Positions 15,798 to 30,435 of a stretch of DNA of 64,000 nt are shown here, in pieces; position 1 is the stretch's first letter; every line of letters begins with the position of its first letter. Location of the stretch: contig LVKA01000026.1 in assembly GCA_001709035.1 (NCBI GenBank), positions 1-64,000 of the forward strand, given 5' to 3'. Both the position numbers and the translations under genes were made by a program. The notes under the pieces are model-generated. The model was not told the DNA's origin and ran no database searches. It saw only the letters and a program-made list of their open reading frames with translations. The stretch is from Candidatus Thiodiazotropha endoloripes. Lineage in GTDB: Bacteria; Pseudomonadota; Gammaproteobacteria; Chromatiales; Chromatiaceae.

Positions 15798-16334
15798 GTG
15801 GCACTTAAATCAACAGTCTATAAAACGGAACTGCAAGTATCGAATATGGATGAACAGCACTATGAAACCTATAGCCTGACACTGGCGAGACACCCATCGG
15901 AAACCAATCAACGTATGATGTTGCGTCTGGCGGTTTTCGCTTTGAATGCGAATCAGCAACTCAGCTTTACCAAGGGGATTAGCACCGATGACGAACCGGA
16001 TCTTTGGCTGAAGAGTTTGAGTGATGAGATTGAGCTCTGGATTGAGTTGGGTCAGCCGGATGAAAAGCGTTTGAGGCGGGCCTGCGGCAGGTCCAAGCGT
16101 GTGCTGGTCTATCCATATGCTGAGCGTAGTGCTTCGATCTGGTGGGAACAGATGCAGCAGACAGTCAGTCGCTTCGCGAATTTGAGTGTGATCAATCTAA
16201 TTCTTGAGGATATGGATCAGCTGGATAATCTCGTTGCGCGAAATATGCAGCTGCACTCTACCATACAGGAGGGCCAGCTCTGGCTTGGTAACGATCAAAT
16301 GACTTTGCTGATCGAGCTGCAACAGTGGCAGTAG
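15798..16334 (+). CDS. yaeQ: YaeQ family protein
   Basis: 178 residues matching YaeQ, a PD-(D/E)XK-fold protein of unclear role, historically linked to RfaH suppression. The family start ALKSTVYKTELQVSNMD is reached with GTG 15798. The upstream frame would add 27 residues unlike the family, so GTG 15798 is preferred. Recognisable segments are LARHPSETNQRMMLRLAVFAL, ELWIELGQPDEKRLRRACGR, VLVYPYAERSASIWW and a terminal IELQQWQ. Downstream of arfB on the same strand, separated by the repeat copy. Convergent with tpm. Confidence 0.92.
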   Translation: MALKSTVYKTELQVSNMDEQHYETYSLTLARHPSETNQRMMLRLAVFALNANQQLSFTKGISTDDEPDLWLKSLSDEIELWIELGQPDEKRLRRACGRSKRVLVYPYAERSASIWWEQMQQTVSRFANLSVINLILEDMDQLDNLVARNMQLHSTIQEGQLWLGNDQMTLLIELQQWQ

Positions 16335-16362
16335 GAGATTGCGAGAAGAAGAGGGGTGTTGG

Positions 16363-17058
16363 TTAACCGGGGTTCCCTGCAGGCTTCAACAGATAGATCT
16401 TTTCCACCATCTGGCTGACCCCGTGGTGTTGGTAGCGGTCTGTGTTCTGCAGTAGATCAAGGCGATGCAGCAGGTTGATGGTGAAGTGTTGTTCGAACAG
16501 CTCCCGGATCTCCGCTTCGCCCACACTGTAGGGTGGACCGGCCATCTCGTCCTGGGGGTACTCCAGGGTGACCAGGAGGATTTTTGCATGACTGGGTAGC
16601 AGTTCAATGATCAGGCGAGCAAACTGTTGTCGTTGTTGAGGGTTGAGTGCAATTAATGAGGCCCTGTCGTAGACCGCATCAACATCCGAAGTATCATGCT
16701 GCGCCAGGTCGAAGATATCACCACATAAAAGCTCAAACGGTCCCTGGCGCCACTGCTCAAAATTGTCACTCTTCTCTACAGTAGGCTGAAGATTGTGTTC
16801 ATCGAAGAATTGGCTTATCGCCAATCGGCTTAGCTCAATCCCACGAATGCGGTAACCCTGTTCAGCCAGCCAGAACATATCTCTGCTCTTGCCGCAGAGC
16901 GGTGCCAGCACCAGGGAGCCTGCGGGGAGATAGAGCGTGTGCCAGTAATTCAGTAGATGTTGATTGAACTCCACATGGTGCCAACCGATATTGTTATCTT
17001 CCCAGCGTTGCAGCCAGTTCTCGTTGGGCGCTCTGAGTTCAGTGGTGGATTTGCTCAT
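16363..17058 (-). CDS. tpm: thiopurine S-methyltransferase
   Basis: 231-residue SAM-dependent methyltransferase of the TPMT family. It has the N-terminal ENWLQRWEDNNIGWHH signature, LVLAPLCGKSRDMFWLAEQGY as the SAM-binding loop, GIELSRLAI, and a DAVYDRASLIALNP segment. Bacterial Tpm methylates thiols and also selenium and tellurium oxyanion products. It is near the methanethiol oxidase block (about 4 kb away) but transcribed separately, so any functional tie is speculative. Confidence 0.94.
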   Translation of the reverse strand: MSKSTTELRAPNENWLQRWEDNNIGWHHVEFNQHLLNYWHTLYLPAGSLVLAPLCGKSRDMFWLAEQGYRIRGIELSRLAISQFFDEHNLQPTVEKSDNFEQWRQGPFELLCGDIFDLAQHDTSDVDAVYDRASLIALNPQQRQQFARLIIELLPSHAKILLVTLEYPQDEMAGPPYSVGEAEIRELFEQHFTINLLHRLDLLQNTDRYQHHGVSQMVEKIYLLKPAGNPG

Positions 17059-17328
17059 CTATCGTCCTGCTGATCGTCACCTTGCTTGCCTGGGAGTATG
17101 TTTTTGTTTGCACAAGTTGGCAAGCACAATCAATCTGACAGATTCCGCAAAACCGGGGTCAGAGTATGCTAACTTGTTATCTGATTTACCTTTTTTGATA
17201 AAAAAATAGCCAGGGAAATTGCATGAAATCGATCCAGCTTGGTATAATGCTGTGAGTTTTTAGGGTTTGGCTCACACGATGTGAAAGCCACAGGGTTGCG
17301 GAGAATAGAGATAGGGAGATCTTTGAAG

Positions 17329-18216
17329 ATGGGCATGACTGTTGATAAATCATTTGGTGACTTGGGCCCCGGGGGCAATCAGGATCCAGTAGTTCCGGAT
17401 TGGCGGAGCATGGAGATACCGGATGCCTGGCCTGATCTATCTAATTTCAGTAGTTTGGGGGGGTTCTGGTCCCTGCTCAAGCTGATCGCCGCTAAAAAGC
17501 GTCCCACGGTTGAACTTCCTGAAGGTATGCCCGGACGGGAAATGATACCCAAGTATGTGCTGCGGGAATTCCACAATTTTCCCAACGGCAACTACTCGAA
17601 GGCGATGACACGGCGGTATATCAATAATTTCGACCGTTTCATGTTGGGTGAAATCAAAAAACTCAGAAAACGTCTGGCTGCGGAATTCAACGGTGCCAGT
17701 CGGGTTCTCGATATCGGCTGTTCCGGTGGCGGTGTCGCGGCTGAGTTGGAAGCTCTGGGTGTTGAAGATGTCTGGGGCATAGACCCTTCACCCTATCTGC
17801 TCAAACATGGCGCTGATGAGTACCCCAACATCAAGTTTGTTCAGGGCATAATTGAAGAGACGGGATTTCCTGACCGACGCTTTGAGGGGGCTACCGCGGG
17901 GTTTCTGTTCCATGAAATGCCGATCAAGTACTTCGAGCTGAGTCTGAAGGAGATTAACCGGATACTCGAGCCGGGCAGTCTGCTGGCCATCGGAGAGCCA
18001 TCGCCGGTCCAGGCCTATAGCGGATATTGGGAGATGATCCGCCGCTTTGGTCTGAAAGGGCTCTATTTCAGCTGGTTTGCCAAATCGATTCACGAACCTT
18101 TTCTCAACACCTGGCACAATTGTGATTTACAGGGGCTGTTCGACAAACATGGTTTTGACTTGGAGCTGGATGAGGTTGGCATGCCGATTCGCTATATTCT
18201 GGCGCGTAAACGCTAA
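17329..18216 (+). CDS. class I SAM-dependent methyltransferase
   Basis: About 295 residues. The Rossmann methyltransferase core starts near residue 120 with motif I VLDIGCSGGGVAAELEALG, followed by WGIDPSPYLL (acidic motif II) and FPDRRFEGATAGFLFHEMP, a Methyltransf_11-type arrangement. The first 115 residues are an extra N-terminal domain without a recognised family. ATG 17329 is preferred since GGGAGA lies about 12 bp upstream; the frame is open back to 17281. The substrate is unknown. The next gene follows in the same direction after about 80 bp. Confidence 0.82.
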   Translation: MGMTVDKSFGDLGPGGNQDPVVPDWRSMEIPDAWPDLSNFSSLGGFWSLLKLIAAKKRPTVELPEGMPGREMIPKYVLREFHNFPNGNYSKAMTRRYINNFDRFMLGEIKKLRKRLAAEFNGASRVLDIGCSGGGVAAELEALGVEDVWGIDPSPYLLKHGADEYPNIKFVQGIIEETGFPDRRFEGATAGFLFHEMPIKYFELSLKEINRILEPGSLLAIGEPSPVQAYSGYWEMIRRFGLKGLYFSWFAKSIHEPFLNTWHNCDLQGLFDKHGFDLELDEVGMPIRYILARKR

Positions 18217-18295
18217 CAACAGGGTTGATTGGTCAGTGATAACTCACCCTGAGGGCATTTTGCGACCATGGTCTATCAGGCTGATCTCCAAGTAG

Positions 18296-19291
18296 ATGAG
18301 TGAGCCCGAATTTCAACACGCGTTTGCCTCCTTGACGCCGGATACCATGCTCGATGCCATCGAGTCGACCGGGGTTGTCTGTAGTGGACAATTTTTAGCA
18401 CTGAACAGTTATGAAAATCGGGTTTATCAGGTCGGTATGGAAGAGGGGCCAGCGCTGGTAGCGAAGTTCTATCGCCCCAATCGCTGGAGTGATGAGGCCA
18501 TCCTTGAAGAGCATGGATTCACCCTGGCGCTGGCTGATCAGGAGATTCCAGTCATCGCACCGGCAGTTGATGAAAGCGGGGAGTCGCTTCACCACCATCA
18601 AGGGCTCAGATTCACCCTCTATCCCTGTCGAGGGGGACGCCCACCGGAACTGGATGACCCGTCACACCTCGAACAACTGGGGCGTTTCATCGGCAGGATT
18701 CATAGTCTGGGCGCAACTGAGTCATTCAGCCATCGCCCCGAGCTCGACATCGAGCACTATCTGTTGCGACCCAGTCACTATCTGCTGGAGCACGATTTTC
18801 TGCCGCAACACCTGCTGAGTGCCTACCAGACGATTGTCGATGATCTGCAACAGCGAATCGAAACCTGCTATGGCCGGGCAGGCGCCTTCAACACGATACG
18901 ACTGCATGGGGATTGTCATCCCGGAAATATCCTCTGGCGGGATGATGGACCGCAGATCGTCGATTTTGATGACGCCAGGACTGGGCCCGCCATGCAGGAT
19001 TTGTGGATGTTTCTCTCTGGAGATCGGCGCTATATGACCGAGCGTCTGGCCGATTTACTGGACGGTTACACCCAGTTCTATGATTTCAATCCAGCCGAGC
19101 TCCATCTGTTGGAGGCGTTACGCAGCCTGAGGCTTGTCCACTATGCAGGCTGGCTTGGCAAACGCTGGGACGATCCGGCATTTCCGGCGGCCTTTCCCTG
19201 GTTTGATTCAGTGAGATTCTGGGAAGACCATATCCTCACGCTTCGAGAACAACTTGCGAAAATGGATGAACCGCCACTCGTCTACAGCTGA
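18296..19291 (+). CDS. srkA: SrkA-type stress-response serine/threonine kinase (YihE)
   Basis: 331 residues matching SrkA/RdoA, a kinase of APH-like fold that limits stress-induced death in E. coli. Visible motifs are NSYENRVYQVG, VAKFYRPNRWSDEAILEEH (ATP-binding lysine and glutamate), the catalytic loop HGDCHPGNILW and the metal-binding VDFDDARTGPAMQDLWM. Length is usual for the family. In many bacteria it sits with dsbA, but no dsbA is seen here. Convergent with the TetR gene. Confidence 0.94.
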   Translation: MSEPEFQHAFASLTPDTMLDAIESTGVVCSGQFLALNSYENRVYQVGMEEGPALVAKFYRPNRWSDEAILEEHGFTLALADQEIPVIAPAVDESGESLHHHQGLRFTLYPCRGGRPPELDDPSHLEQLGRFIGRIHSLGATESFSHRPELDIEHYLLRPSHYLLEHDFLPQHLLSAYQTIVDDLQQRIETCYGRAGAFNTIRLHGDCHPGNILWRDDGPQIVDFDDARTGPAMQDLWMFLSGDRRYMTERLADLLDGYTQFYDFNPAELHLLEALRSLRLVHYAGWLGKRWDDPAFPAAFPWFDSVRFWEDHILTLREQLAKMDEPPLVYS

Positions 19292-19358
19292 CAGGGCAAC
19301 AGAGCAGGTGCCGGTCGGCATTTTCCGGATTTGACCGTCGAGTCGATTGATCGCTGAC

Positions 19359-19976
19359 TCAAGCCACGCTTTCTTGTATGGATATGGGCTCCATGCCATG
19401 CCACATACAATCGATCAACTCATCGTAAAGATCAGGCAGAGGGATATTCAGCACCCCGTCCAGCCGAAGATGAATCAAGCGAATGGCACCGCCAAAGACA
19501 CCTGAGGCGACTACCCAGGGGTCACCCATGCGGATCTCGCCGGATTCCATTCCCCGTTGTACAAGTTTGCGCATGGTCTTAAACGGGGTGGAGCTACAAA
19601 TCGGCGGCTCATCCGGCAGAAACTCCTGGTGTTTGGCATGTAGTACATAGGCGACGATATTGCGCTTGCTCTCGGTATACTCAAACAGCAGTGAGATAAT
19701 CCGGTTACAGCTCTCACGAAAACTCAGATTTTCGTCAATCACATCCGCAACCAGCTCTTCCATCTCTCTGATTAAGTGGTAGTAGAGGGCTTTCGCGACC
19801 CCTTCCTTTCCCCCGAAATGGTTGTAGATCGAGCCGATACTGACATTCGCCAGCTTCTGGATGTCATGAATCGATACGTTGTGATATCCGCGTTCGACAA
19901 ACAGGTCGAGGGCTGTACTGAGGATGCGGTCGTAGACCGGTAGATCTTCCGTCGCGGTTTTTTTCAAATGGAGCAT
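19359..19976 (-). CDS. TetR-family repressor adjacent to the methanethiol oxidase locus
   Basis: 205 residues. The N-terminal helix-turn-helix (about 15-62) has the family signature ILSTALDLFVERGYHNVSIHDIQKLANVSIGSIYNHFGGKEG. The ligand-binding helical C-terminus is of uncertain ligand, with two cysteines (CSSTPF and DCMWHG) that could sense redox or thiols. Two near-identical palindromes (about 20591 and 24863) in front of mtoX and the TlpA-like gene are the best candidates for its operators. A dispersed-repeat copy begins only about 14 bp upstream of the start, so its own promoter lies in or beyond the repeat. Confidence 0.88.
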   Translation of the reverse strand: MLHLKKTATEDLPVYDRILSTALDLFVERGYHNVSIHDIQKLANVSIGSIYNHFGGKEGVAKALYYHLIREMEELVADVIDENLSFRESCNRIISLLFEYTESKRNIVAYVLHAKHQEFLPDEPPICSSTPFKTMRKLVQRGMESGEIRMGDPWVVASGVFGGAIRLIHLRLDGVLNIPLPDLYDELIDCMWHGMEPISIQESVA

Positions 19977-19989
19977 GTGAATACCTGGT

Positions 19990-20239
19990 ACGGCCGATTA
20001 ACGTGAATCCAATCAGCCCTGATGAAACGATGGTTTTCTTCAGCAAGGTGGAGTGAGCGAAGTGTCGTGACAAAAACTGAGCGAACGGTAGCGAGACTGC
20101 GGCATTGAACTTTCCCATCCCCTGAAGGTAGCGGAGAGCCACCTGAAAAAGTACCAGACCGGATCGCTCGTCGTTCATACAGTACAGCCAAACTTCTCTC
20201 CTCACACCTTGATTGGCGTTTTCTATTCTTAACAGGCCA
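19990..20239. repeat. diverged full-length copy of dispersed inverted-repeat family (copy 2)
   Basis: It begins CGGCCGATTAACGTGAATCC and ends TTCTTAACAGGCC, matching the family termini in opposite orientation. It shares the internal tracts GCTCGTCGTTCAT, CCAAACT and CCTTGATTGGC with the copies near 53 and 63 kb. At about 250 bp it also carries an inner section seen only in the 53-kb copy (GAGCGAAGTGTCGTGA...). It lies directly upstream of the TetR gene start. Confidence 0.75.
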
Positions 20240-20590
20240 AATTGGAGTCGTCTTCTCTGATCCTGTCAATTTCTATATTGTGATCAATTATATACAGTGT
20301 TGCCTAACGTATAAATCTACTCATCGTAGGGTCTCGAATAGATTGCTCCGAGGTGTCCGGTCATGCTGCGCCGGCCATTAACCAGCGATATCGCCCCGGA
20401 TTGGCTGGGTCTGAGCCTACCTCCGGTCACCACAATTGGGCCTCGACTGCAATGGTGCGATACCCGAAATAGGAATTCCGTTCCTTTCTGGCCAAGCCTT
20501 ATACCCCGTGTGTTTCCCCGGGTTAGCGGCCAAGCGGCAAGCGTCCATGTTCATCCGTACACCACCCTAGCATAGTAAAAAAATTTGACT
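20240..20590. other. non-coding gap between repeat copy and mtoX promoter
   Basis: About 350 bases without a convincing gene. A 70-codon forward frame at 20363-20575 has an unnatural composition and no family. An upstream stretch (TCTATATTGTGATCAATTATATACA) is AT-rich and could carry a promoter for the TetR gene on the minus strand. A remnant gene or small RNA cannot be excluded. Confidence 0.4.
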
Positions 20591-20619
20591 AGAATGAATA
20601 TTCGTTCTAATTTCATTAT
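20585..20619 (+). promoter_or_regulatory. mtoX promoter with TetR-type palindromic operator
   Basis: The palindrome AGAATGAATATTCGTTCTA (20591-20609; TAGAAYGAATATTCRTTCTA as a symmetric site) follows directly a -35-like TTGACT (20585-20590). It overlaps a weak -10 candidate TAATTT (20608, 17-base spacer), with CATTAT further on. A repressor bound here would block RNA polymerase. A closely matching site (16 of 19) lies before the TlpA-like gene. The mtoX start is about 210 bp downstream, leaving a long leader with a CCCGGA/TCCGGG stem near 20725-20752. Confidence 0.65.
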
Positions 20620-20826
20620 AGCCGCTTACCTCACTGCCAGCTGTATCGCAGCAGGACTATGGAGGGTCGAACGGCTCCTGTGCCTAGGGATCTTTGGCAA
20701 TCAAGCATGATGAGTTGTACCCACCCGGATTGGATTTTCAGTCATTCCGGGTTTGGCCATCTGCATTGGCAGGGCTGAGGTAAGGCTGAATAGCAGTAAA
20801 AAATTTACCACTAGGAGGTTTTAATC

Positions 20827-22215
20827 ATGAGGCTATTCAAAAAAAAGCCTGCCAAATCCATTGCCCTGGCATCCGCCCTGGCCATTGGCGCCACCCTGTT
20901 CGGTGCCACACTTTCCCTGCAGGCCGATGAGACCTGCCAGTCACCCTACATGGCCAAGATTGTCGGCCAGGAAGATTTTGTCTATGTCTGGACGCTGGGT
21001 ATTGAAGGCATGGGAGACGGCCAGGACAAACTAGTGACCGTCGATGTCAATCCCAAATCGGCAAACTACGGTAAAGTGGTCGATTCACTTTCCATTGGTG
21101 GGCGTAATGAAGCGCACCATTCAGGTTTTACCGACGATCGTCGCTACCTCTGGGCTGGCGGTCTCGATACCAACAAACTTTTCATCTTCGATGTACACAG
21201 CGATCCGGCGAAACCCACGCTGCATAAAGTCGTCACCGACTTTGTCGAGAAGAGTGGTGGTGTGGTCGGACCCCACACGACCTATGCATTGCCTGGTCGT
21301 ATCATGATCACAGGTCTTTCAAACAATAAGGATCATGGTGGTCGTACTGCGTTGGTTGAGTACACCAATGAAGGCGAGTATATCGCCACCCATTGGATGC
21401 CCACCGACCAGAATCTGCGCGGTGCGGAGAAAACCGGTAAGTATGCCGATGGCTACAGCTACGATGTTCGGGTTTTGCCTCGCCGTAACATCATGCTTAC
21501 TTCCTCCTTTACCGGCTGGTCCAACTACATGATGGATTTCGGCAAAATGTTACAGGATAAGCAGGCGATGAAGCGCTTCGGCAATACCGTGGTGCTTTGG
21601 GATCTGCACAGTAAAAAGCCTACAAAGGTTTTTGATGTGCCCGGCGCACCTCTGGAGATCCGCTGTGCCTGGCAGCCCGACCACAACTGGTGTGTTACCA
21701 CGACAGCTTTGACCTCCAAGATCTGGCTGATCTATGAAGATCAACAGGGGGAATGGCAGGCTGAAGCGGTTGCCGATGTCGGTGATGCCTCGAAAGTGCC
21801 TCTGCCGGTGGATATCTCCATCAGTTCTGATGACAGTCGCCTCTGGGTCAATACATTTATGGATGGTAAGACCCGGCTGTTCGATATGACCAATCCGCAT
21901 AAACCGAAACAGGTCTATGAGAAGGTGATCGGCCGACAGGTCAACATGGCCTCATCCAGCTGGGACAGCACCCGTATCTACTACACCTCTTCACTGCTGG
22001 CCAACTGGGACAAGAAGGGTGAGGACAATGAGCAGTACTTCAAGAGTTACGTCTGGAATGGAGAGCAACTGGTTGAGAAGTTTGCCATCGATTTCAAGGC
22101 GCTCAAACTTGGTCGGGCACATCAGATGCGGTTTGGTGCTTACTCCCTGTATGGTCAGGTCAGACCTGAGGATCGGCAGACCTCCATAGCCGGTCTGGAT
22201 ACCACAGGCAAGTAG
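20827..22215 (+). CDS. mtoX: periplasmic methanethiol oxidase (SBP56 / selenium-binding protein family)
   Basis: 462 residues with a Sec-type signal peptide (MRLFKKKPAKSIALASALAIG..., cleavage near SLQADE), then the SBP56 beta-propeller. Conserved stretches include ETCQSPYMAKIVGQEDFVYVW, NEAHHSGFTDDRRYLWAGGL, GGVVGPHTTYALP, GYSYDVRVLPRRNIMLTSSFTG, GAPLEIRCAWQPDHNWCVTTTAL and AHQMRFGAYSLYGQ. Bacterial SBP56 enzymes are copper-containing oxidases converting methanethiol to formaldehyde, H2S and H2O2. Such operons typically include SCO and MauG genes, as here. A strong AGGAGG site lies 8 bp before ATG. First gene of the operon; control by the upstream TetR operator is inferred. Confidence 0.93.
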   Translation: MRLFKKKPAKSIALASALAIGATLFGATLSLQADETCQSPYMAKIVGQEDFVYVWTLGIEGMGDGQDKLVTVDVNPKSANYGKVVDSLSIGGRNEAHHSGFTDDRRYLWAGGLDTNKLFIFDVHSDPAKPTLHKVVTDFVEKSGGVVGPHTTYALPGRIMITGLSNNKDHGGRTALVEYTNEGEYIATHWMPTDQNLRGAEKTGKYADGYSYDVRVLPRRNIMLTSSFTGWSNYMMDFGKMLQDKQAMKRFGNTVVLWDLHSKKPTKVFDVPGAPLEIRCAWQPDHNWCVTTTALTSKIWLIYEDQQGEWQAEAVADVGDASKVPLPVDISISSDDSRLWVNTFMDGKTRLFDMTNPHKPKQVYEKVIGRQVNMASSSWDSTRIYYTSSLLANWDKKGEDNEQYFKSYVWNGEQLVEKFAIDFKALKLGRAHQMRFGAYSLYGQVRPEDRQTSIAGLDTTGK

Positions 22216-22308
22216 TGTCTATCCGATGCGGATCTCTGACTGGGATCCGCAAATGACAATCCCGGCTGGGTCTCTGGGAGCCGGGTTTGTCAGCACCTGG
22301 GAGCATTT

Positions 22309-24267
22309 ATGGTTTTTCGATTTTTCCAACCATTTCTGATTGCGGCAATATTCGTAACAACGGTTGATGCCAATTCGATCAACCCTTCGGTCATCTCGGC
22401 GCCTGGTTATGGTGAATTGGCTTACAAGCTGCCTGAGATCGGCAGTTACCAGTTGCCACCCTTGGGTGAGGCATCGAATGGTGAGGTTCTGATTGCCGAG
22501 GGTGAACAGCGAACATTGTATGAGCTTTTCAATGGCAAGTATGTGTTGCTGGCATTTATCTACAGCACTTGCAGCGATGTTAACGGCTGTCCACTGACTT
22601 CTCATGTCTTTTACAAAATCAAATCGGCAATGCAACGGGATCAAGTGCTGGCCAGCAGGCTGAAATTGATCAGTCTCAGTTTCGATCCGGAAGTCGACAC
22701 CCCTTCGGTAATGGGGCTGTATGGCAATAACTTTCGCTACGCAGGGAGTGCTGGTGAGTGGCAGTTCGTCACCACCGCCTCGCAGCAGAGCCTGGATCCG
22801 ATTCTGAAGTCCTACAATCAGGTGATCTTACGTGAGACCGATAGCAGTGGCAGGACCCATGTGGGATACAGTCATGTGCTCAGAGTATTCCTCATCGATC
22901 CGGAAAAGAACATTCGTAATATATACAGTGTCGATTTCCTGCATCAAGATCTGATCATCAATGATCTGAAAACAATTCTTCAACAAGCGCAGAGAAGCGG
23001 TGAGACCATCAAGCTGGCAACGGCATCACAGCAAACATCCCGGCTTTCGAAACCGGGGGATAATAAACTGGGATATGAACTCAGCGATTACGTCACCGAT
23101 TCGCAGGATTTGGAGTTGAGAAAGGGTGAGAAGGCGGACCTGCTGTCAATTGCCAACAACCCCCCATTGGGATTGCCGGCGATCCCGGTGCCTGTTGACA
23201 ATCCGTTGTCCCGGGAGAAGATCGAGTTGGGCCGAAAGCTGTTTTACGATCGCAGACTTTCGCTCAACGATACTTTCTCCTGCGCCATGTGCCATGTGCC
23301 GGACCAGGGATTTACCAGTAATGAACTGGCTATGGCAGTGGGCATCGAAGGGCGTTCGGTACGACGCAACTCCCCCTCAGTCTACAACTCAGCCTACAGT
23401 AAGCTGCTGTTCCATGATGGCCGGGAGGAGAATCTGGAACAGCAGGCCTGGGGGCCTTTGCTGGCAAACAACGAAATGGCCAATCCATCGATCGGCTATG
23501 TGCTCAACAAAATCCGCCAGATCGATGACTACCGTGGTCTGTTTGAAGCGGCTTTCGATGGTAGAAGCGTATCGATGGAGACACTGGGCATGGCGCTGGC
23601 CAGTTACCAGCGTGCTCTGGTTTCAGCTGACTCCCCATTTGACCGTTGGCGGTATGCCGGTGATGAGACAGCACTCTCCGAATCGGCAAAGCGGGGGTTT
23701 GAGATCTTTACCGGTAAGGCAGGATGTGTTGCTTGTCACTCAATCGGAGAACGGAGTGCCCTGTTCATGGATGATCAACTGCACAACACAGGAATCGGTT
23801 ACCGGGAGTCGATGGGGTTTTCTCCGGACAAGCAGCCGGTGACAGTTGCCCCAGGGATTAGCATCGAAATCGATCGTGCAATTATCGATCAGGTGGGCGA
23901 GAAACCGCCCACAGATGTAGGTCGTTATGAGGTGACTCAGAATCCTCATGATCGCTGGAAATACAAGACCCCCAGTCTACGCAACGTGGATCTCACCGCA
24001 CCCTATATGCATAACGGTTCACTTAGCACTCTGCACGAGGTAGTCGATTTCTATGATCAGGGTGGGGTGCCTAATGAGCTACTCGATCCGCTGATCCGAC
24101 CGCTCGGTCTTTCGTCGCAGGAGAGATCGGATCTGGTTGATTTTATGCGATCCCTGACCGGCAGCAATGTGGACACCCTGGTTGCGGATGCCTTTAACGC
24201 TCCCATAGGGGATGTGGGGGAAGGGGATCCCAGCTGGGTGCATGGCAGCGAAGTGGAGGTACGCTGA
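22309..24267 (+). CDS. SCO-MauG fusion: copper chaperone domain joined to dihaem peroxidase
   Basis: 652 residues. A signal peptide is followed by a SCO/thioredoxin-like domain (about 50-235). Its cysteines C88 and C94 are in TCSDVNGCP, a CX5C spacing rather than the usual CX3C, and H189 in GYSHVLRVF is the expected copper-ligand histidine. The C-terminal MauG/cytochrome c peroxidase domain (about 285-635) carries two haem c motifs, CAMCH (325-329) and CVACH (473-477), plus KTPSLRNVDLTAPYMHNGSLSTL. Separate SCO and mauG genes accompany mtoX in known operons and are thought to mature the oxidase; here they form one polypeptide. It starts 93 bp after mtoX and abuts the next gene. Confidence 0.93.
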   Translation: MVFRFFQPFLIAAIFVTTVDANSINPSVISAPGYGELAYKLPEIGSYQLPPLGEASNGEVLIAEGEQRTLYELFNGKYVLLAFIYSTCSDVNGCPLTSHVFYKIKSAMQRDQVLASRLKLISLSFDPEVDTPSVMGLYGNNFRYAGSAGEWQFVTTASQQSLDPILKSYNQVILRETDSSGRTHVGYSHVLRVFLIDPEKNIRNIYSVDFLHQDLIINDLKTILQQAQRSGETIKLATASQQTSRLSKPGDNKLGYELSDYVTDSQDLELRKGEKADLLSIANNPPLGLPAIPVPVDNPLSREKIELGRKLFYDRRLSLNDTFSCAMCHVPDQGFTSNELAMAVGIEGRSVRRNSPSVYNSAYSKLLFHDGREENLEQQAWGPLLANNEMANPSIGYVLNKIRQIDDYRGLFEAAFDGRSVSMETLGMALASYQRALVSADSPFDRWRYAGDETALSESAKRGFEIFTGKAGCVACHSIGERSALFMDDQLHNTGIGYRESMGFSPDKQPVTVAPGISIEIDRAIIDQVGEKPPTDVGRYEVTQNPHDRWKYKTPSLRNVDLTAPYMHNGSLSTLHEVVDFYDQGGVPNELLDPLIRPLGLSSQERSDLVDFMRSLTGSNVDTLVADAFNAPIGDVGEGDPSWVHGSEVEVR

Positions 24268-24834
24268 ATGACACGGGCCGACAAAAAGCTCTGGCTGGTG
24301 CTGCTGTTCACCATTCTGTCTGTGACCATGGCATCTGCCGGTACGGAAGAGATCGGTGGGGATTTCACGCTCACCGATCACAACAACGACACCTTTCGAC
24401 TGAGTCAGCTGCAGGGCAAACTGGTACTGCTCTCTTTCGGCTATACCTATTGTCCTGATATCTGCCCCACAGAATTGGCCAAATTAGCCGTGGTATTCGA
24501 TACGCTGAAGGGCGAATCGGATGATCTTCAGGGACTTTTCGTCTCTCTGGATCCGGATCGCGATACCCCGGCTGTTCTGAGTGATTATGTGGGTTATTTC
24601 AACAGTGAAATTGTTGGTTTGACCGGCAGTGAAAAGGCGGTTGATCAGGTGGCGCGACAATACCGGGTAAAGTATCAGCGCAATGACAAGGCTGGGGGAG
24701 GGTACAGTATCGATCACTCAGCCAATCTCTATCTGATTGATCAGATGGGTGAATTGGTCGTGGTAATTCCCTACGGTATGCCGGTTGAACACATCGTGGA
24801 TGTGGTGCGGGGCATGTTGTCGGTGGATGGTTGA
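24268..24834 (+). CDS. SCO1/SenC family copper-delivery protein
   Basis: 188 residues with a signal peptide (about 1-27) and a thioredoxin-like SCO domain with the standard copper site: C62 and C66 in YCPDICPTE and H150 in SIDHSANLYLID. The SDYVGYF and LSFGYTYCPD segments are also typical. The ATG follows the preceding stop directly (TGAATG), so it is translationally coupled to the SCO-MauG gene. In this setting it most likely delivers copper to periplasmic MtoX, though a role in cytochrome oxidase assembly is possible. Confidence 0.93.
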   Translation: MTRADKKLWLVLLFTILSVTMASAGTEEIGGDFTLTDHNNDTFRLSQLQGKLVLLSFGYTYCPDICPTELAKLAVVFDTLKGESDDLQGLFVSLDPDRDTPAVLSDYVGYFNSEIVGLTGSEKAVDQVARQYRVKYQRNDKAGGGYSIDHSANLYLIDQMGELVVVIPYGMPVEHIVDVVRGMLSVDG

Positions 24835-24862
24835 TCAAGATGCTGTATCCCCGCGACTTAAA

Positions 24863-24881
24863 AAAATGAATATTTGTTCCA
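24863..24881 (+). promoter_or_regulatory. second copy of the TetR-type operator, before the TlpA-like gene
   Basis: AAAATGAATATTTGTTCCA matches the mtoX-promoter palindrome at 16 of 19 positions, including the whole ATGAATATT core. It lies 59 bp upstream of the TlpA-like ATG in a 105-bp gap after the second SCO gene. Its presence implies an internal, co-regulated promoter rather than simple read-through. Confidence 0.6.
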
Positions 24882-24939
24882 TTTTCTCTGAAAATTCGAC
24901 CAGTCAGGTTGAGCGTTTTTTAAACACTGGATCTACCCG

Positions 24940-25491
24940 ATGAATCCGGTACATCTCCACAGCAGCGCTCTATCCGCTTTAACCTGGTTGATCCTGTTTT
25001 TATTACTGCTGATCTCATCCTCCCAGACTCGCGTGGAGGCCGCTGAATATCGGCTTGCACCGGTAGCGCCAATACCGGCGCTACCGTTCAGGCTACCGAA
25101 CCTTGATGGTGAGTATAAACAGCTCCGGGACTACCGGGGCCAGGTGGTGCTGGTCAACTTCTGGGCCAGCTGGTGTACCCCATGCCGGGCCGAGCTGCCC
25201 TCCATGAACCGGGCCTGGGATCGTTTAAAATCCAGTGGCATGGCGATGCTGGCAATCAATCTGGGGGAGAACAGGGAGGCCGTCAGCGCATTCCTGCGCG
25301 ACTATCCCATCGATTTTGAAGTGCTGATGGACGAACGGGGGCGCATTAGTCAGCGATGGCGAGTCAAAGCTCTGCCCACCACATTGGTGCTGAACAAACG
25401 GGGACTGATCATCTACCAGGTGGTTGGTGAACGTGAATGGGACCAGCCGGCTTTGATTGAACTCATCGAATCATTACAGTCTGGATATTGA
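24940..25491 (+). CDS. TlpA/ResA-like membrane-anchored thioredoxin
   Basis: 183 residues. An N-terminal membrane anchor (about 12-34) leads to a periplasmic thioredoxin fold with the redox pair C79/C82 in NFWASWCTPCRAELPSM. The cis-Pro loop is VKALPTTLVLN, with an ending typical of TlpA/ResA. Such proteins reduce apo-cytochrome c or SCO cysteines. Next to two SCO domains and a dihaem protein, that would keep the copper and haem sites loadable. It is controlled by its own copy of the putative operator. Convergent with greB. Confidence 0.9.
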   Translation: MNPVHLHSSALSALTWLILFLLLLISSSQTRVEAAEYRLAPVAPIPALPFRLPNLDGEYKQLRDYRGQVVLVNFWASWCTPCRAELPSMNRAWDRLKSSGMAMLAINLGENREAVSAFLRDYPIDFEVLMDERGRISQRWRVKALPTTLVLNKRGLIIYQVVGEREWDQPALIELIESLQSGY

Positions 25492-25646
25492 GTGCCGCTC
25501 AAATTTTCTGCTTCAATGCGGCCGGTACAGCATGCTTGAATCGCATGAAGTTTCCTACCCGGCACGATCCTCAGCATTTGTGTAGGTTTATTAAGACCCT
25601 TCTCTATATCCCGGAGAACCCAGGCCCCAAGGCGTGCTATCAGGTC

Positions 25647-26150
25647 CTAGTCAGGCGTCTCATATCGTACATCGGTGATCCAGTATTTGGTTACCCCAGC
25701 TGGTGTCTCTACAATGACCTGATCGTCAAGATTGCGTTTCAAAAGCGCTTGTGCCAGCGGCGAGTCGAGACTGATGTAACTGGGGTGACTATCGATTTCA
25801 TCCGGTCCGACGATCCGGTACTCCTGCTCATCACCACCTTCTGATTCGAGCAGAACCCAGGCGGCAAAGAAGACCTGCTCTGAATTGGCCGGGGGCTGAT
25901 TGACAACTTTTAGACTGGGCAGGCGTTTTTGCAGGTAGCGGATTCTGCGGTCGATCTCACGAAGCTCCTTCTTACGGTAGATGTATTCTGCGTTTTCTGA
26001 CCGGTCACCTTCGGCTGCAGCCGCCGCCAAGGCTTTGGTTACATCCCGTCGTCGCAGCCACAATCCCTGCTGCTCAGTTTTCAGGCTTTCATATCCCTGT
26101 AGTGTGATATAGGGTGATTTCGGTGGCGCAGGCGGTCTGTATCTTCCCAT
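25647..26150 (-). CDS. greB: transcript cleavage factor GreB
   Basis: 167 residues. The N-terminal coiled coil inserts into the RNA polymerase secondary channel; its tip carries acidic residues in AAAEGDRSENAEYIYRKKELREID, the GreA/B signature. The C-terminal domain has YRIVGPDEID and SPLAQALL. It rescues backtracked polymerase by stimulating RNA cleavage. The higher basicity and start MGRYRPP favour GreB over GreA. Confidence 0.95.
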   Translation of the reverse strand: MGRYRPPAPPKSPYITLQGYESLKTEQQGLWLRRRDVTKALAAAAAEGDRSENAEYIYRKKELREIDRRIRYLQKRLPSLKVVNQPPANSEQVFFAAWVLLESEGGDEQEYRIVGPDEIDSHPSYISLDSPLAQALLKRNLDDQVIVETPAGVTKYWITDVRYETPD

Positions 26151-26233
26151 GGCGTGTTTAAATGAGCGGGTGACTGTTAAGAATTTGTTACTGGCTTAAG
26201 TATAAGAATCCAATTCTTTAAATTAACTCCATT

Positions 26234-26260
26234 CAGGGCCTGTTAATACGGAACCAATCA
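26234..26260. repeat. solo terminus of the dispersed repeat family
   Basis: AGGGCCTGTTAATACGGAACC matches the family's left terminus (AGGGCCTGTTAAGACTAATCC) at most positions, but no right partner follows within 300 bp. It may be a decayed copy. It lies in the 264-base gap between greB and the protease gene. Confidence 0.4.
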
Positions 26261-26414
26261 TCCTTACTTGGAATGCTGTTAACAAATACTAGTATTGCAC
26301 AATCACCATTACATGGGATCAAGGTGACATATTCACCATTGAAATGATGTTTGAATACTCTAAAATCAGGCAGATACTAATCATATCGGATTTATAAAAA
26401 AGGGGACATTTGGC

Positions 26415-29024
26415 GTGGCAAAGATAAAACTTTCAGAAAAACTGTCAAAAATACTTCTTACCCTTCTGGTTTCCGGGATCATCGCAGCGTGTGGTGGCGG
26501 TGGTGGCGGTGGTTCGGATGATGACGACGGAGGTGATAGTGGCGATGGTGGTAGTACCAGCGGCAGTATCAGCGGTCTGATATCAGTTCCTGGCTATGTG
26601 GTTACTGACAGTGACGTCAATGATGATCAAACCACACCGGTCGCCAATCAACCGGCGAACAATGCACAGTCCGTACCCAACCCTGTCAATATCGGTGGTT
26701 ATGTCAATGTGGCCGGGACAGGCGCTGCCGGTAATCTGAGGGCTTCCGGTGATCCGGATGATTACTACCTGGTCAATCTGACATCGGGGCAGACCCTGGT
26801 GCTGAATATCGGTGACATCGATGTGGGTGGTGTCGATCTGGATCTCTACCTGTTTGATGTGAACAATCTGAGCAATCCGGTCGCCAGTTCGATCGGTACA
26901 TCAAAATTCGAGACCATCGTGGTGCCATCCGATGGTCAATATTATGTCATCGTGCATGCCTACAGTGGTGCTTCAAACTACCTTCTTTCCATTGGTTTGA
27001 CTGCTTCCTCTCTGGTTCCACAAGGCGGTATGAGTGTCAATGATGACTTTGTGCCAGGTGAGGTGCTGGTCAAATTTGATACTGATTCAAGCCAAGCCAA
27101 ATCCCTGAATACCGGACTAAGCCACTATAGCTTCAGTGGTTCTCCAGAGAATGAAATCGGTGTTCAACGGCTGACTCTGAATGATCAGTTCGTCAGCAAT
27201 GCCGCCGCTCGCCCAGGGATCTATGCGCAAATGGACAGCGAGGCCCAGCTGAAGCTGGATACCATCATGGCGATCAAAGAGCTCAACCAGCGCAGTGACG
27301 TGGTCTATGCTCAACCCAACTATATTTATCAAGCCTCTGCAATTCCGAATGACGAGTATTACAATCTGCAATGGCACTACAATCAGATCAATCTGCCTCA
27401 GGCCTGGGATATCACCACCGGTGATACCAGTGTCATCGTATCGGTAATCGATACCGGTGTGCTGTTGAACCATCCTGACCTGAGCGGTCAGCTGGTGAAC
27501 GGTTATGACTTTATCTCCGATGCCGGCAATGCAAACGACGGGGACGGCATCGATGCCAATCCGGACGATGCCGGTGATGAGATTCAGAACGGAGTCTCCA
27601 GTTTTCACGGTACCCATGTAGCCGGAACCGTAGCCGCCAGCAGTAACAACTCCACAGGTGTTGCCGGTGTGGCCTGGAATGTACGGATCATGCCGATCCG
27701 TGTACTCGGCAAGCAGGGTGGTTTCAGTAGCGACATCATCGACGGCATTCTCTTCTCGGCTGGTTTGTCCAACGCATCCGGTACCACGCCTGCACAGAGA
27801 GCGGATGTCATCAACATGAGTCTGGGTGGTGCTTCTCCCGACCAGGCCAGTTTTGATGCGATCACCGCAGCGCGTAACGCCGGGGTTATCGTGATTGCCG
27901 CAGCGGGTAATGAAAACACCTCACAACTTGCCTATCCCGCATCCTATACCGGTGTGGTCTCGGTAAGTTCGGTCGATCAAAGCCGTACCAGGGCACCCTA
28001 TTCGAATTATGGTACCGAGATCGATGTGGCTGCACCTGGCGGTAACACTCAGGCCGACGTGGACGGTGACGGTCGAGCTGACGGTGTACTCAGTACCCTG
28101 GGTGATGACTCTCAGGGCGGTACCAGCTTTACCTATAACTTCTACCAGGGCACCTCGATGGCGGCGCCTCATGTGGCGGGTGTGGCTGCATTGATGAAAT
28201 CTGTCTACGCTGGTCTGACGCCGGCCGAGTTCGACAGCATGCTCTCCTCCGGGGAGCTGACCAACGACATCGGTAACAGTGGCCGGGACGACCTCTACGG
28301 GCACGGTCTGATCGATGCCTACAAAGCCGTGGTGGCCGCACAACAGCGGGGTGGTGGTAACACACCAACTGATCCCTCATTGAGTGTCAATCCGCAGAGC
28401 CTCAACTTCTCGAATTCACTGCAGTCCACCTCGCTGTTTGTGGAAGAGATCGGCGGATCTGTCGGTACCGTTCAGATCAGTGAAAACATCTCCTGGTTGT
28501 CGGTTGCGGCAAATCAGGTGAATGGCTCGGGTATCGGCAGTTACACCGTCAGTGTCGACCGTAGTGGACTTTCACCGGCAACCTATACAGGTACCATTCA
28601 GGTGAGTGCAGGAACCTCCAGTGTCGATGTGAATGTGATTATGCAGGTGCTGGATAGTTCGATTTCCGGTGATGCCGGTCGTCACTATGTACTGCTGGTC
28701 GACAATGCAACCAGTCAGCCTGTACAACAGGATGAGGTAAATACCAATTCCGGTAGCGGCAGTTACAGTTTCAGTAATGTCAGCTCAGGCGACTACTACG
28801 TTGTTGCCGGTTCAGACATGGACATGGATAACCTGATCTGCGATAACGGCGAGTCCTGTGGCGCCTATCCCACCCTCTCTCAGCCCAATGTCATAACGGT
28901 TGGGTCTGGCGCAGTCAATGGGCTGGATTTTTCAGCAACCTACGAGTATCAGACTCCGACTTCCAATGCACTCTCTGCGGAAGAGAGCGTTCAAGAGCTG
29001 ATGGTCTACCCACGTCAGGACTGA
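26415..29024 (+). CDS. lipoprotein subtilisin-family (S8) serine protease
   Basis: 869 residues. The signal peptide has lipobox SGIIAAC, then a Gly stretch and acidic GSDDDDGGDSGDGG linker. A pre-peptidase C-terminal (PPC) domain lies at about 75-195 and a fervidolysin-like propeptide at about 210-305 (PGEVLVKF, VVYAQPNYIYQ). The S8 catalytic domain covers about 315-640, with Asp346 (VIDTGV), His398 (FHGTHVAG) and Ser581 (GTSMAAPHVAG). A BACON/Ig-like domain (about 655-755) and a carboxypeptidase-regulatory-like beta domain (about 760-850) follow. It should act at the cell surface or in the periplasm. GTG start with AGGGGA about 8 bp upstream. The next gene, 11 bp on, encodes a PrcB-domain lipoprotein. 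Confidence 0.93.
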   Translation: MAKIKLSEKLSKILLTLLVSGIIAACGGGGGGGSDDDDGGDSGDGGSTSGSISGLISVPGYVVTDSDVNDDQTTPVANQPANNAQSVPNPVNIGGYVNVAGTGAAGNLRASGDPDDYYLVNLTSGQTLVLNIGDIDVGGVDLDLYLFDVNNLSNPVASSIGTSKFETIVVPSDGQYYVIVHAYSGASNYLLSIGLTASSLVPQGGMSVNDDFVPGEVLVKFDTDSSQAKSLNTGLSHYSFSGSPENEIGVQRLTLNDQFVSNAAARPGIYAQMDSEAQLKLDTIMAIKELNQRSDVVYAQPNYIYQASAIPNDEYYNLQWHYNQINLPQAWDITTGDTSVIVSVIDTGVLLNHPDLSGQLVNGYDFISDAGNANDGDGIDANPDDAGDEIQNGVSSFHGTHVAGTVAASSNNSTGVAGVAWNVRIMPIRVLGKQGGFSSDIIDGILFSAGLSNASGTTPAQRADVINMSLGGASPDQASFDAITAARNAGVIVIAAAGNENTSQLAYPASYTGVVSVSSVDQSRTRAPYSNYGTEIDVAAPGGNTQADVDGDGRADGVLSTLGDDSQGGTSFTYNFYQGTSMAAPHVAGVAALMKSVYAGLTPAEFDSMLSSGELTNDIGNSGRDDLYGHGLIDAYKAVVAAQQRGGGNTPTDPSLSVNPQSLNFSNSLQSTSLFVEEIGGSVGTVQISENISWLSVAANQVNGSGIGSYTVSVDRSGLSPATYTGTIQVSAGTSSVDVNVIMQVLDSSISGDAGRHYVLLVDNATSQPVQQDEVNTNSGSGSYSFSNVSSGDYYVVAGSDMDMDNLICDNGESCGAYPTLSQPNVITVGSGAVNGLDFSATYEYQTPTSNALSAEESVQELMVYPRQD

Positions 29025-29035
29025 GGGGATAACAG

Positions 29036-29530
29036 ATGAAAGTATTTAACACATTGAAATGGCTGGGGCTGTCAGCCCTGTGTATCACTATGACCGCTTG
29101 TAATGTCCAGGATAATTCAGTTTCTGTCGTCAAAGACGGTGTTGCCTGTTCCAATAACCAGGCAGCCGGCATGCATCTGGTCAAAAAGGGCGTCATCAAA
29201 AACGTTGGTGGCGGCGTGGTAATGAGTGACAAGTCCCTCAAAGCCGGCGAGGCAGGCAAATCTGACACGGATGATAGTTGGCTGGTCCGAGTCGACATGG
29301 GGCAGCAGCCGAGTGGGGGCTATGGATTGAAACTGCTCTCAGACAAGTTGGCCATTGAGGAGCAGACGGCGACTTTGGCACTGCAGTGGAGTAAGCCGGA
29401 GCCTGGTATGGCTCAGGTGCAGATGATCACCTTTCCATGTCTCTACCTGAAAATCGCCAAAGGTGATTACACTCGTCTGGCCGTGGTTGATGAAGAGGGT
29501 AATCTGAAACACAGCCTGGATCTGCCTTAG
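29036..29530 (+). CDS. PrcB-domain lipoprotein, probable partner of the S8 protease
   Basis: 164 residues with lipobox CITMTAC. The C-terminal half (about 75-160) shows the PrcB_C pattern: VRVDMGQQPSGGYGLKLLSD, an ATLALQW strand and MAQVQMITFPCLYLKIAKG. In Treponema denticola PrcB is a lipoprotein needed to stabilise the surface protease dentilisin, whose catalytic subunit PrtP is also a subtilisin. The 11-bp spacing from the S8 gene and the shared lipoprotein export strongly suggest a protease-accessory pair. A strong hairpin follows downstream. Confidence 0.82.
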   Translation: MKVFNTLKWLGLSALCITMTACNVQDNSVSVVKDGVACSNNQAAGMHLVKKGVIKNVGGGVVMSDKSLKAGEAGKSDTDDSWLVRVDMGQQPSGGYGLKLLSDKLAIEEQTATLALQWSKPEPGMAQVQMITFPCLYLKIAKGDYTRLAVVDEEGNLKHSLDLP

Positions 29531-29976
29531 CGCGATAAACTGAACTTATCAAACAGCCATTGATGCTGACATCAAGCTGACAGCTTATCGACCCGGTAAT
29601 CTCTCTTTTACCGGGTCGATAAATGCTTGATGGTTTTCACTCCCCGCTACCGATTACTTACACCGCTTCTGCTTTTCCCGCAGATTATCCATTTTTAACC
29701 GGAAATAAATGGATTCTTCTTCAAGAGTCAGGGCGATCCCAGCCTGGCTTGTAAGCTCGCATTGATGAATGCCCAATTGTGACTATTGGTCTACTGTCAA
29801 TAGGAGTACAGAAGCTCTGATGAATTCTCTTTATGATCTTCCAGTTCTGTTGACCAATCCAGCGATGAGAGATGAATGGATTGAGATTGTTCGGAGTGAC
29901 GGATTGATCAAGTCACGTTGTATCTGATATCAGGAATAGCTTTCAATACAAACAGCTGAGCAAAGGGGCGTGACAT
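29531..29976. other. intergenic gap with 3' hairpin and a doubtful 35-codon frame
   Basis: About 450 bases. The left part holds the hairpin listed separately. A small frame 29820-29927 (MNSLYDLPVLLTNPAMRDEW..., ending SRCI) has AGGAG upstream, but it is too short to support as a gene. No repeat-family copy was seen. Confidence 0.4.
29585..29622 (+). terminator. strong stem-loop after the protease/PrcB operon
   Basis: Perfect 15-bp arms TTATCGACCCGGTAA / TTACCGGGTCGATAA around an 8-base pyrimidine loop, 55 bp after the PrcB-like stop. Only a short AT-rich tail follows, so termination efficiency is uncertain, but the stem is the strongest near this operon's end. Confidence 0.65.
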
Positions 29977-30435
29977 ATGAGCAGTAACAGCCGTTTTACC
30001 ATCTCTTCCGTAGAGAGGAGTGACTTTGACAAAATGGTCGATCTACTGAGACAACTGTTTTCAATTGAAGCGGATTTCAATGTGGATCCGGATAAACAAA
30101 GACGGGGTTTGGAACTGCTTCAGGCGTCTGAAACAGCAGAGATCTTTGTTGTCAGGAGTGATGGCCAGGAGATTGTCGCGATGGCTACCCTGCAGTTGGT
30201 CGTATCCACTGCAGAGGGAGGGTTGGTTGCCTGGATGGAGGATGTTGTCGTCGACGCCGACCATCGTGGTCAGGGTGTTGGAGCGTTACTGTTATCCCAT
30301 ATCAAACGGTGGCTGGAGAACCGAGGGATAAAAAGAGTTCAACTGGTTGCTGACCGGGATAATCGATTAGCCCTCGATTTCTATAAAAAACAGGGATGGC
30401 AGGAGATCAATTTGAATGTACTTCGTCATAAGTAG
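29977..30435 (+). CDS. GNAT-family N-acetyltransferase
   Basis: 152 residues with the acetyl-CoA binding motif A VVVDADHRGQGVGALLLSHI (about 90-108) and the closing DNRLALDFYKKQGWQ typical of GNAT enzymes. The acceptor substrate cannot be told from sequence. Preceded by AAGGGGCG. It appears monocistronic. Confidence 0.88.
   Translation: MSSNSRFTISSVERSDFDKMVDLLRQLFSIEADFNVDPDKQRRGLELLQASETAEIFVVRSDGQEIVAMATLQLVVSTAEGGLVAWMEDVVVDADHRGQGVGALLLSHIKRWLENRGIKRVQLVADRDNRLALDFYKKQGWQEINLNVLRHK

What the first reader, a model, noticed from the sequence alone, without database searches (positions are those of the whole stretch)
19359..25491. Self-contained, TetR-controlled methanethiol oxidase module
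mtoX is followed by a SCO-MauG fusion, a second SCO and a TlpA-like thioredoxin, with a TetR regulator beside them. Known mtoX operons contain SCO and MauG genes. Here the set has two SCO domains, a thiol reductant and a local repressor, forming a complete copper/haem maturation kit for one periplasmic oxidase that makes H2S, H2O2 and formaldehyde from methanethiol.
Basis: partly seen in the sequence, partly recalled or inferred. Interest (0 to 1): 0.8.

Follow-up and report, generated by a model that had tools for sequence, protein, structure and literature searches.

The report
Methanethiol oxidase cluster with formaldehyde-linked repressor
A clam-symbiont-like bacterium carries a known kind of gene set for breaking down the smelly gas methanethiol, and its repressor and DNA switch belong to a group that elsewhere sits beside formaldehyde genes, which suggests that the switch reads the formaldehyde made rather than the gas itself.

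Summary
The genes are real and at the stated coordinates: divergent TetR, mtoX, an SCO·MauG-like fusion, a second SCO and a TlpA/ResA-like thioredoxin. mtoX, SCO·MauG fusion and second SCO in that order are already published for Methylophaga thiooxydans, so the 'maturation kit' is a known kind. New here: (1) a near-palindrome upstream of mtoX reaches 16/18 or better in 29 of 31 TetR-linked mtoX loci and 2 of 50 others, directly after a TTGAC in 28 of 32 aligned sites. (2) In a search blind to context the 12 closest TetR relatives all lie within 1.5 kb of mtoX (3), frmAB (6), a GFA-family gene (2) or a methanol/ethanol-type PQQ dehydrogenase (1); 1 of 24 more distant ones does. (3) frmAB follows in the same cluster in 10 of 20 operator-bearing mto loci, 0 of 37 without. 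So the repressor more likely answers to formaldehyde or its glutathione adduct than to methanethiol; binding and effector are untested. The window's genome gave no FrmA over cut-off and no Fae, Mch or FdhA match, so 'self-contained' is not supported.

The parts
19359..19976 (-). TetR-family repressor (205 aa), divergent from mtoX; nearest fold Bacillus subtilis FadR
   Evidence: PF00440/PF16295; AlphaFold model mean pLDDT 90.9; Foldseek 3whb_A E 2.8e-8, TM 0.78/0.84
20585..20590 (+). TTGACT, -35-like hexamer; TTGAC stands at this place in 28 of 32 aligned sites
   Evidence: read; alignment. The generic promoter scan did not list this promoter
20590..20609 (.). near-perfect palindrome TAGAATGAATATTCGTTCTA, proposed TetR operator lying in the promoter spacer
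   Evidence: only place in the genome within 3 mismatches of the 20-mer
20608..20613 (+). TAATTT, proposed weak -10 hexamer (inferred from spacing; 3 of 6 consensus bases)
20827..22215 (+). mtoX, methanethiol oxidase (462 aa) with signal-peptide-like N-terminus (by eye)
   Evidence: NF052453 783 bits; H97 H98 H150 H432 conserved in 80-81 of 81; N-terminus
22309..24267 (+). SCO (CX5CP...H) fused to MauG/MbnH-like dihaem domain (652 aa)
24268..24834 (+). second SCO, canonical CX3CP...H (188 aa), start codon abuts the fusion's stop
24895..24913 (+). terminator-like hairpin with T tract between SCO and thioredoxin genes (number of such hits not above shuffles)
24940..25491 (+). TlpA/ResA-like thioredoxin (WCTPC; 183 aa)
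   Evidence: one open frame with the SCO in L033, L048, L068

Best explanation
The cluster makes and matures one periplasmic, copper-dependent methanethiol oxidase, and a divergent TetR represses it by sitting on a palindrome that lies directly after the -35 hexamer of the mtoX promoter. The TetR belongs to a clade found beside genes that make or remove formaldehyde, so the most likely inducing signal is formaldehyde, or its adduct with glutathione, made from methanethiol by MtoX: methanethiol is sensed through its carbon product. Maturation (inferred): the thioredoxin reduces the second SCO, which loads copper; the fused CX5C SCO and dihaem domain act on the oxidase itself. Shown here by computation: gene identities, operator conservation and position, regulator clade, neighbours. 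Inferred: DNA binding, the effector, and each maturation step.
For: Operator: of 31 TetR-linked mtoX loci (window included) 26 match the 18-bp consensus at 18/18, 2 at 17, 1 at 16, 1 at 15 and L025 at 12; of 50 other loci 2 reach 17 (L027, and L036 at a contig edge) and 5 more reach 15. The consensus was drawn from these loci, so the independent test is: an exact search of 369 genomes finds 24 with a site, the reversed control pattern 1. 20 of those 24 genomes have a relative of the TetR, 16 of the other 345 do. Merged by hand to places there are 31 sites, 22 with a TetR relative within about 1.5 kb. Geometry: TTGAC directly 5' of the palindrome, facing mtoX, in 28 of 32 aligned sites; TTGAC before the site, facing the frmA, GFA or PQQ-dehydrogenase side, in L113, L115-L119, L123 and L164; in L114 the hexamer facing GFA is TTGAAT. 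Neighbours: 36 TetR places in 35 genomes (the window and a fragment in G241 left out); 12 of 12 at 255 bits or more lie within 1.5 kb of mtoX (3), frmA with frmB (6), GFA (2) or a TIGR03075 methanol/ethanol-type PQQ dehydrogenase (1), 1 of 24 below does (Fisher p 1e-8; without the mtoX rows 9 of 9 against 1 of 24, p 2.6e-7). Tree: those rows and the other mtoX-linked ones form one clade of 39 (95/93), mto and frm rows interleaved. G074 has one such TetR by its PQQ dehydrogenase and a second operator before frmAB on another contig. frmAB follows the mto genes in 10 of 20 operator loci against 0 of 37.
Against: No binding or induction was tested. The TetR profile was seeded with mtoX-linked sequences, the neighbour probes were taken from genes first seen beside operator sites, and the 255-bit line was drawn after seeing the table; the tree clade is less arbitrary. 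Some rows are close kin (L113/L114 and L117/L123 are same-genus pairs; L163 and L167 repeat L006 and L054), so the Fisher values are too small. In L117 and L123 frmA lies about 0.8 kb from the TetR, in L123 with an open frame between. Four genomes have a site but no such TetR. More distant TetRs share the operator without C1 neighbours, some with TTGAC too, so the operator alone does not tell the signal. Four Methylococcales loci reach 15/18 from what looks like another motif. C127 is not a clade marker: 22 of 23 outside rows have it, 3 of 7 frm rows and the pqq row lack it. The nearest fold is an acyl-CoA sensor. In Ruegeria, under an IclR regulator, methanethiol induces mtoX about 14-fold and the authors take it as inducer; formaldehyde is not named in that section. 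The window's own genome shows no FrmA over cut-off. L165 has no operator within 400 bp of its TetR.
Confidence: 0.6

Rival explanations
1. The TetR senses methanethiol (or another volatile thiol) directly; the frm-linked relatives sense something else.
For: The TetR was found beside mtoX in 30 of 80 related loci; methanethiol induces mtoX in Ruegeria, though under an IclR regulator.
Against: Nine of the twelve nearest relatives found without regard to context have no mtoX within 6 kb but a formaldehyde-linked gene; mto- and frm-linked rows interleave in the tree and most share operator and -35 placement.
Confidence: 0.2
2. The TetR senses a fatty acyl-CoA or another unrelated ligand, as its FadR-like fold suggests, and the C1 genes are passengers or downstream of a general signal.
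For: Nearest structures are FadR proteins, some with acyl-CoA; the operator resembles the GAATGA half-sites of FadR/BM3R1 (recalled, not from a call).
Against: No fatty-acid gene was seen among the clade's neighbours that were named, a part of all neighbours; fold and half-site reflect scaffold and DNA-binding part, not the ligand.
Confidence: 0.1
3. The dihaem part is a peroxidase that clears the H2O2 made by the oxidase, not a maturase.
For: The domain is from the di-haem peroxidase family (PF03150) and classical peroxidases align well (E down to 4e-42).
Against: Y582 (61 of 63 fusions) aligns with the peroxidases' Met and, judged from the alignment ends, with MauG residue 294, the Tyr that marks MauG (role recalled); the nearest solved chain, 6e1c, a 'Di-heme enzyme', also has Tyr there.
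Confidence: 0.25
4. The SCO, MauG and TlpA genes are not needed for oxidase activity under ordinary conditions; they tune copper supply or serve another copper enzyme.
For: MTOs of Ruegeria and relatives are reported active in or from E. coli, and human SELENBP1 made in E. coli is active with copper (passages).
Against: SCO and MauG genes stay with mtoX across classes, and the fusion is downstream in 49 of 57 loci with 5 kb held.
Confidence: 0.25

Closest known systems
mto clusters 1 and 2 of Methylophaga thiooxydans (PMC6548844, passages)
   Same: mtoX, SCO1-MauG fusion, then a second SCO/SenC protein, in that order; judged periplasmic by the authors, for some proteins with alternative start sites.
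   Different: There with persulfide dioxygenase, sqrB and sulP; no TetR or separate thioredoxin in the passages seen. Here a divergent TetR/operator, a TlpA-like gene, and in ten relatives frmAB.
mtoX operons of Hyphomicrobium sp. VS and Ruegeria pomeroyi (PMC5739008, passages and section 27)
   Same: mtoX with SCO and MauG-like genes; in Ruegeria a class III formaldehyde dehydrogenase gene follows, and its SCO also has CX5C.
   Different: SCO and MauG separate; IclR regulator in Ruegeria.
TlpA-ScoI of Bradyrhizobium (PMC6696091, passages; PDB 4txo, 4wbj)
   Same: Thioredoxin beside a canonical SCO; the window SCO's best PDB chain is Blr1131 (ScoI).
   Different: There for CuA of cytochrome oxidase; here inside a methanethiol oxidase cluster, and one open frame with the SCO in three relatives.
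FrmR/frmRAB of E. coli and other formaldehyde regulators (PMC8879981, passages)
   Same: A repressor next to frmA-frmB.
   Different: FrmR is CsoR/RcnR-type; the passages also name HxlR and TtmR (MarR family), AdhR, FlhRS, RamAB and GlxR. The terms 'TetR family', 'TetR-type' and 'TetR regulator' occur 0 times in that text.
MbnH/MauG dihaem enzymes
   Same: Two CXXCH and a tyrosine in place of the peroxidase Met.
   Different: Below both curated cut-offs; fused to an SCO.

Membership tests
Methanethiol oxidase (MtoX, bacterial SBP56) | Passes the curated MtoX model | tested here: met
   NF052453 783 bits, cut-off 650
Methanethiol oxidase (MtoX, bacterial SBP56) | Copper-ligand histidines (HH pair and two more) | tested here: met
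   H97, H98, H150, H432 conserved in 80-81 of 81; the HH pair and H150 align with His in 2ece; H432 matched to the published set by spacing only
Methanethiol oxidase (MtoX, bacterial SBP56) | Oxidises methanethiol; contains Cu and proposed TTQ | not testable with these tools
   needs protein
SCO/SenC copper chaperone (fused copy) | CX3CP and distal His | tested here: not met
   CX5CP with H189 in 63 of 63 fusions, CX5C also in the unfused gene of L076 and of R. pomeroyi; PF02630 passes
SCO/SenC copper chaperone (second copy) | CX3CP and distal His | tested here: met
   C62, C66, P67, H150 in 35-36 of 36; best PDB Blr1131
MauG / MbnH dihaem maturase | Two haem motifs and Tyr instead of Met as axial ligand | tested here: met
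   C325/C328/H329, C473/C476/H477 63 of 63; Y582 61 of 63, by alignment
MauG / MbnH dihaem maturase | Passes a curated model | tested here: not met
   TIGR04039 254 of 362.85, TIGR03791 221.6 of 443.85 bits; filed as MauG/MbnH-like only
TlpA/ResA thioredoxin | Thioredoxin fold family with WCxPC | tested here: met
   PF00578; W78, C79, P81, C82 19 of 19; no curated NCBIfam cut-off passed
TetR family repressor | TetR_N domain and two-domain helical fold | tested here: met
   PF00440; model and Foldseek
TetR family repressor | Palindromic operator overlapping the target promoter | tested here: met
   sequence level only; the promoter itself is inferred
Formaldehyde-responsive regulator | Released from DNA by formaldehyde | not testable with these tools
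   context only

The most novel reading that the evidence does not exclude
A TetR-family clade in Gammaproteobacteria, with its own operator (TTGACA-RRAAYGAAYATTCRTTYT), is a formaldehyde-sensing repressor of one-carbon genes that joins formaldehyde producers (mtoX, methanol-type dehydrogenase) and consumers (frmAB) in one regulon: a new protein family for formaldehyde sensing, and product-sensed control of methanethiol oxidation.
Probability: 0.45. Interest if true: 0.75.

Novelty: new variant of a known kind. Interest (0 to 1): 0.6.

Why it matters
Methanethiol oxidation links DMSP/DMS breakdown to sulfide and one-carbon metabolism. The induction data I saw are for Ruegeria and for growth of Methylophaga on DMS; what switches mtoX on here is open. 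A specific TetR and a 20-bp operator, shared with frmAB in other bacteria, turn that into a direct test, and would add a TetR type to the known formaldehyde regulators (none in the review passages; none noticed in the listings, of which only the best 10 to 25 papers were shown). For lucinid symbionts it points to methanethiol as an extra sulfur and energy source (inference); a search for Thiodiazotropha with methanethiol found 0 papers in the library.

Tried and rejected
Structured RNA in the 218-nt leader between operator and mtoX: no Rfam match up to E 1 in 16000-30000. A formaldehyde-reactive cysteine as clade marker: C127 is not specific. Formaldehyde sinks in this genome: FrmA at best 28.7 bits against 543.95; Fae, Mch, FdhA no match. 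No Thiodiazotropha with a reported H4MPT cluster was run as a positive control, and papers report that pathway in other Thiodiazotropha (passages). The genome's one PQQ dehydrogenase over cut-off lies by SoxYZ-like and quinoprotein-relay genes; of the proteins sent none was an H4MPT enzyme. Neighbours of more distant TetRs: of 9 proteins sent from that group (the tenth was from L163), 6 gave no Pfam family at the limit used, so that group stays unexplained. Generic promoter scan: does not list the proposed mtoX promoter. Structure prediction of the fusion was not run (1 of 2 jobs used).

Rows dropped or partial: L001 and L002 (the window itself) were left out of counts; L014 and L026 left out of the tree; L163 and L167 left out of the tree as repeats of L006 and L054; the search for related loci kept the best 80 of 525 relatives, so mtoX counts hold for close relatives only; the fusion alignment used 63 ORFs that passed score limits. 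One search counted 57 of 81 loci, those with 5 kb downstream; L026, with frmAB on the other strand, counts as without.
Full report
Where it is. The window lies in a 4.87-Mb genome (G000, contig 24). Its mtoX is 96% identical to that of a Candidatus Thiodiazotropha taylori MAG and 85-96% to those of other loci titled as Thiodiazotropha or lucinid-clam symbionts near the top of the list, so the source is a Thiodiazotropha-like bacterium; the window itself is unnamed.

What the genes are. mtoX passes the curated methanethiol oxidase model (783 bits, cut-off 650) and is the only match in the genome. The next gene joins an SCO domain to a MauG/MbnH-like dihaem domain, then come a second SCO whose ATG abuts the fusion's stop, and a TlpA/ResA-like thioredoxin. 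All four have signal-peptide-like N-termini by eye. Among 81 mtoX proteins the histidines H97, H98, H150 and H432 and cysteines C37, C280, C289 are conserved in 80-81.

The accessory proteins in detail. The fused SCO has C88-X5-C94-P and H189 in 63 of 63 fusions. The same CX5C stands in the unfused SCO of L076 and of Ruegeria pomeroyi, so it seems to mark the mto-type SCO rather than the fusion. The second SCO is canonical CX3CP...H, nearest in the PDB to ScoI/Blr1131. The dihaem part has two CXXCH motifs in 63 of 63, and Y582 (61 of 63) aligns with the Met of classical peroxidases; its best solved match is 6e1c (5e-50), with MauG at 5e-23 to 6e-21. In three relatives (L033, L048, L068) the second SCO and the thioredoxin are one open frame, which fits a reductant for that SCO as TlpA is for ScoI (PMC6696091, passages).

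What was known. Eyice et al. (PMC5739008, passages and section 27) describe mtoX with SCO1 and MauG genes, fused in some, propose Cu plus TTQ, and show methanethiol induction in Ruegeria. PMC6548844 (passages) describes in Methylophaga the order mtoX, SCO1-MauG fusion, second SCO. So the cluster core is not new. The need for the accessory genes is unproven: PMC10936201 and PMC10362175 (passages) report active enzymes from E. coli, the first with sulfane sulfur as product.

The operator. Between TetR and mtoX lies TAGAATGAATATTCGTTCTA (20590-20609), the only place in the genome within 3 mismatches of that 20-mer. Against an 18-bp consensus, 31 TetR-linked mtoX loci (window included) score 18 (26 loci), 17 (2), 16 (1), 15 (L023) and 12 (L025). 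Of 50 loci without that TetR, L027 and L036 score 17, and L041, L042, L045, L047 and L081 score 15; the four Methylococcales ones among these look like another motif, GACGACCAGTC. At 16 or better: 29 of 31 against 2 of 50. Aligned, the palindrome follows TTGAC directly in 28 of 32 sites (not in L017, L032, L036, L054) and is followed by a T-rich -10-like stretch, as if filling a promoter spacer on the mtoX strand. The window's -10 is weak and the generic scan does not list it.

The regulator's kin. The exact operator occurs in 24 of 369 genomes of the class, the reversed pattern in 1. A TetR profile finds relatives in 36 of 369 genomes; 20 of the 24 site genomes are among them. Merged by hand there are 31 places; 22 have a TetR relative within about 1.5 kb. 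I examined 36 TetR places in 35 genomes. Of the 12 at 255 bits or more, 3 lie by mtoX, 6 by frmA-frmB, 2 by a GFA-family gene and 1 by a methanol/ethanol-type PQQ dehydrogenase; of the 24 below, one (L124) lies by frmAB. The probes for these genes came from neighbours first seen at operator sites, which favours the nearer group. frmA and frmB pass curated models in L116, L118 and L123, and frmA in L115; in L117, L164, L165 and L124 they were recognised by phmmer only (242 to 764 bits). GFA rests on Pfam (36.9 and 39.2 bits, cut-off 24.3), a broad family. In the tree the C1-linked rows, except frm_L124, form one clade of 39 (95/93), with frm rows scattered among mto rows. Genome G074 has a single such TetR, near its PQQ dehydrogenase, and a second operator before frmAB on another contig. 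Genome G009 has the TetR near frmAB on one contig and an operator, without TTGAC, before moaA and an FdhD-like gene (below its cut-offs) on another. So some genomes look like regulons of formaldehyde makers and removers.

frmAB in the mto cluster. In L007, L011, L012, L013, L016, L018, L029, L030, L032 and L036 frmA-frmB follows the mto genes on the same strand; three of these FrmA proteins and one FrmB, all that were sent, pass the curated models. That is 10 of 20 operator-bearing loci with 5 kb downstream held, 0 of 37 others. In Ruegeria a class III formaldehyde dehydrogenase gene follows the MauG-like gene. The window's cluster ends with the thioredoxin, followed by a convergent greB, and the genome gave no FrmA over cut-off and no Fae, Mch or FdhA match.

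Reading. The simplest account is a methanethiol oxidase cluster whose TetR belongs to a one-carbon regulator clade and is relieved by formaldehyde or its glutathione adduct. The operator alone is not enough to say so, since more distant TetRs share it without such neighbours, and no binding was measured. I hold the TetR-operator link as very likely, the formaldehyde signal as more likely than not, and the maturation roles as plausible.

Searches for prior description of a TetR formaldehyde regulator: (the first 10 to 25 papers of each listing seen) and the regulator passages of PMC8879981; none noticed. The library lacks most subscription papers.

Noticed in passing
L131:6914 (-), G000:C14:307912, before ORF L131:6361-6894(-): A second operator-like site in the window's own genome (TTGACT then GAAATGAACATTCATTTT) faces a DsrE/DsrF-family gene, a possible second target of the TetR and a link to sulfur handling. 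A DsrE-family gene also lies by the more distant TetR of L172.
   Followed up: partly
window 19985-20570: The stretch between TetR and operator holds a dispersed repeat: 33 places in the genome match parts of it, 32 besides itself, many over positions 158-270 of the query. The TetR-to-operator gap is about 614 bp here, about 265 in L005 and 77 in L008.
   Followed up: partly
L041, L042, L045, L047 and some other Methylococcales mtoX loci: A different, same-strand TetR (20-34 bits to this one) lies upstream of mtoX with a GACGACCAGTC-like site between them: perhaps an independent TetR control of mtoX.
   Followed up: no
L025, L031, L035, L037, L040, L059, L063, L065: Here an SCO gene lies on the minus strand, upstream of mtoX (in L025 the frame overlaps it); only L025 of these also has a TetR hit.
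   Followed up: no
L169, L127, L120, L121, L125, L171 and other more distant TetR loci: A second group of TetRs, most with the same palindrome, sometimes two sites flanking the TetR gene, and no C1 neighbour found with the probes used; five have a thioredoxin-like gene within 2 kb. Function unknown.
   Followed up: partly
L113 and L114: A second operator in each locus precedes genes with a molybdopterin oxidoreductase carrying a 'Rieske 3Fe-4S' domain (arsenite-oxidase type, recalled), in the same region as the TetR and GFA gene; substrate unclear.
   Followed up: no
window 16363-17058 (-): A thiopurine S-methyltransferase gene (passes TIGR03840) lies about 4 kb from mtoX; no link shown.
   Followed up: no
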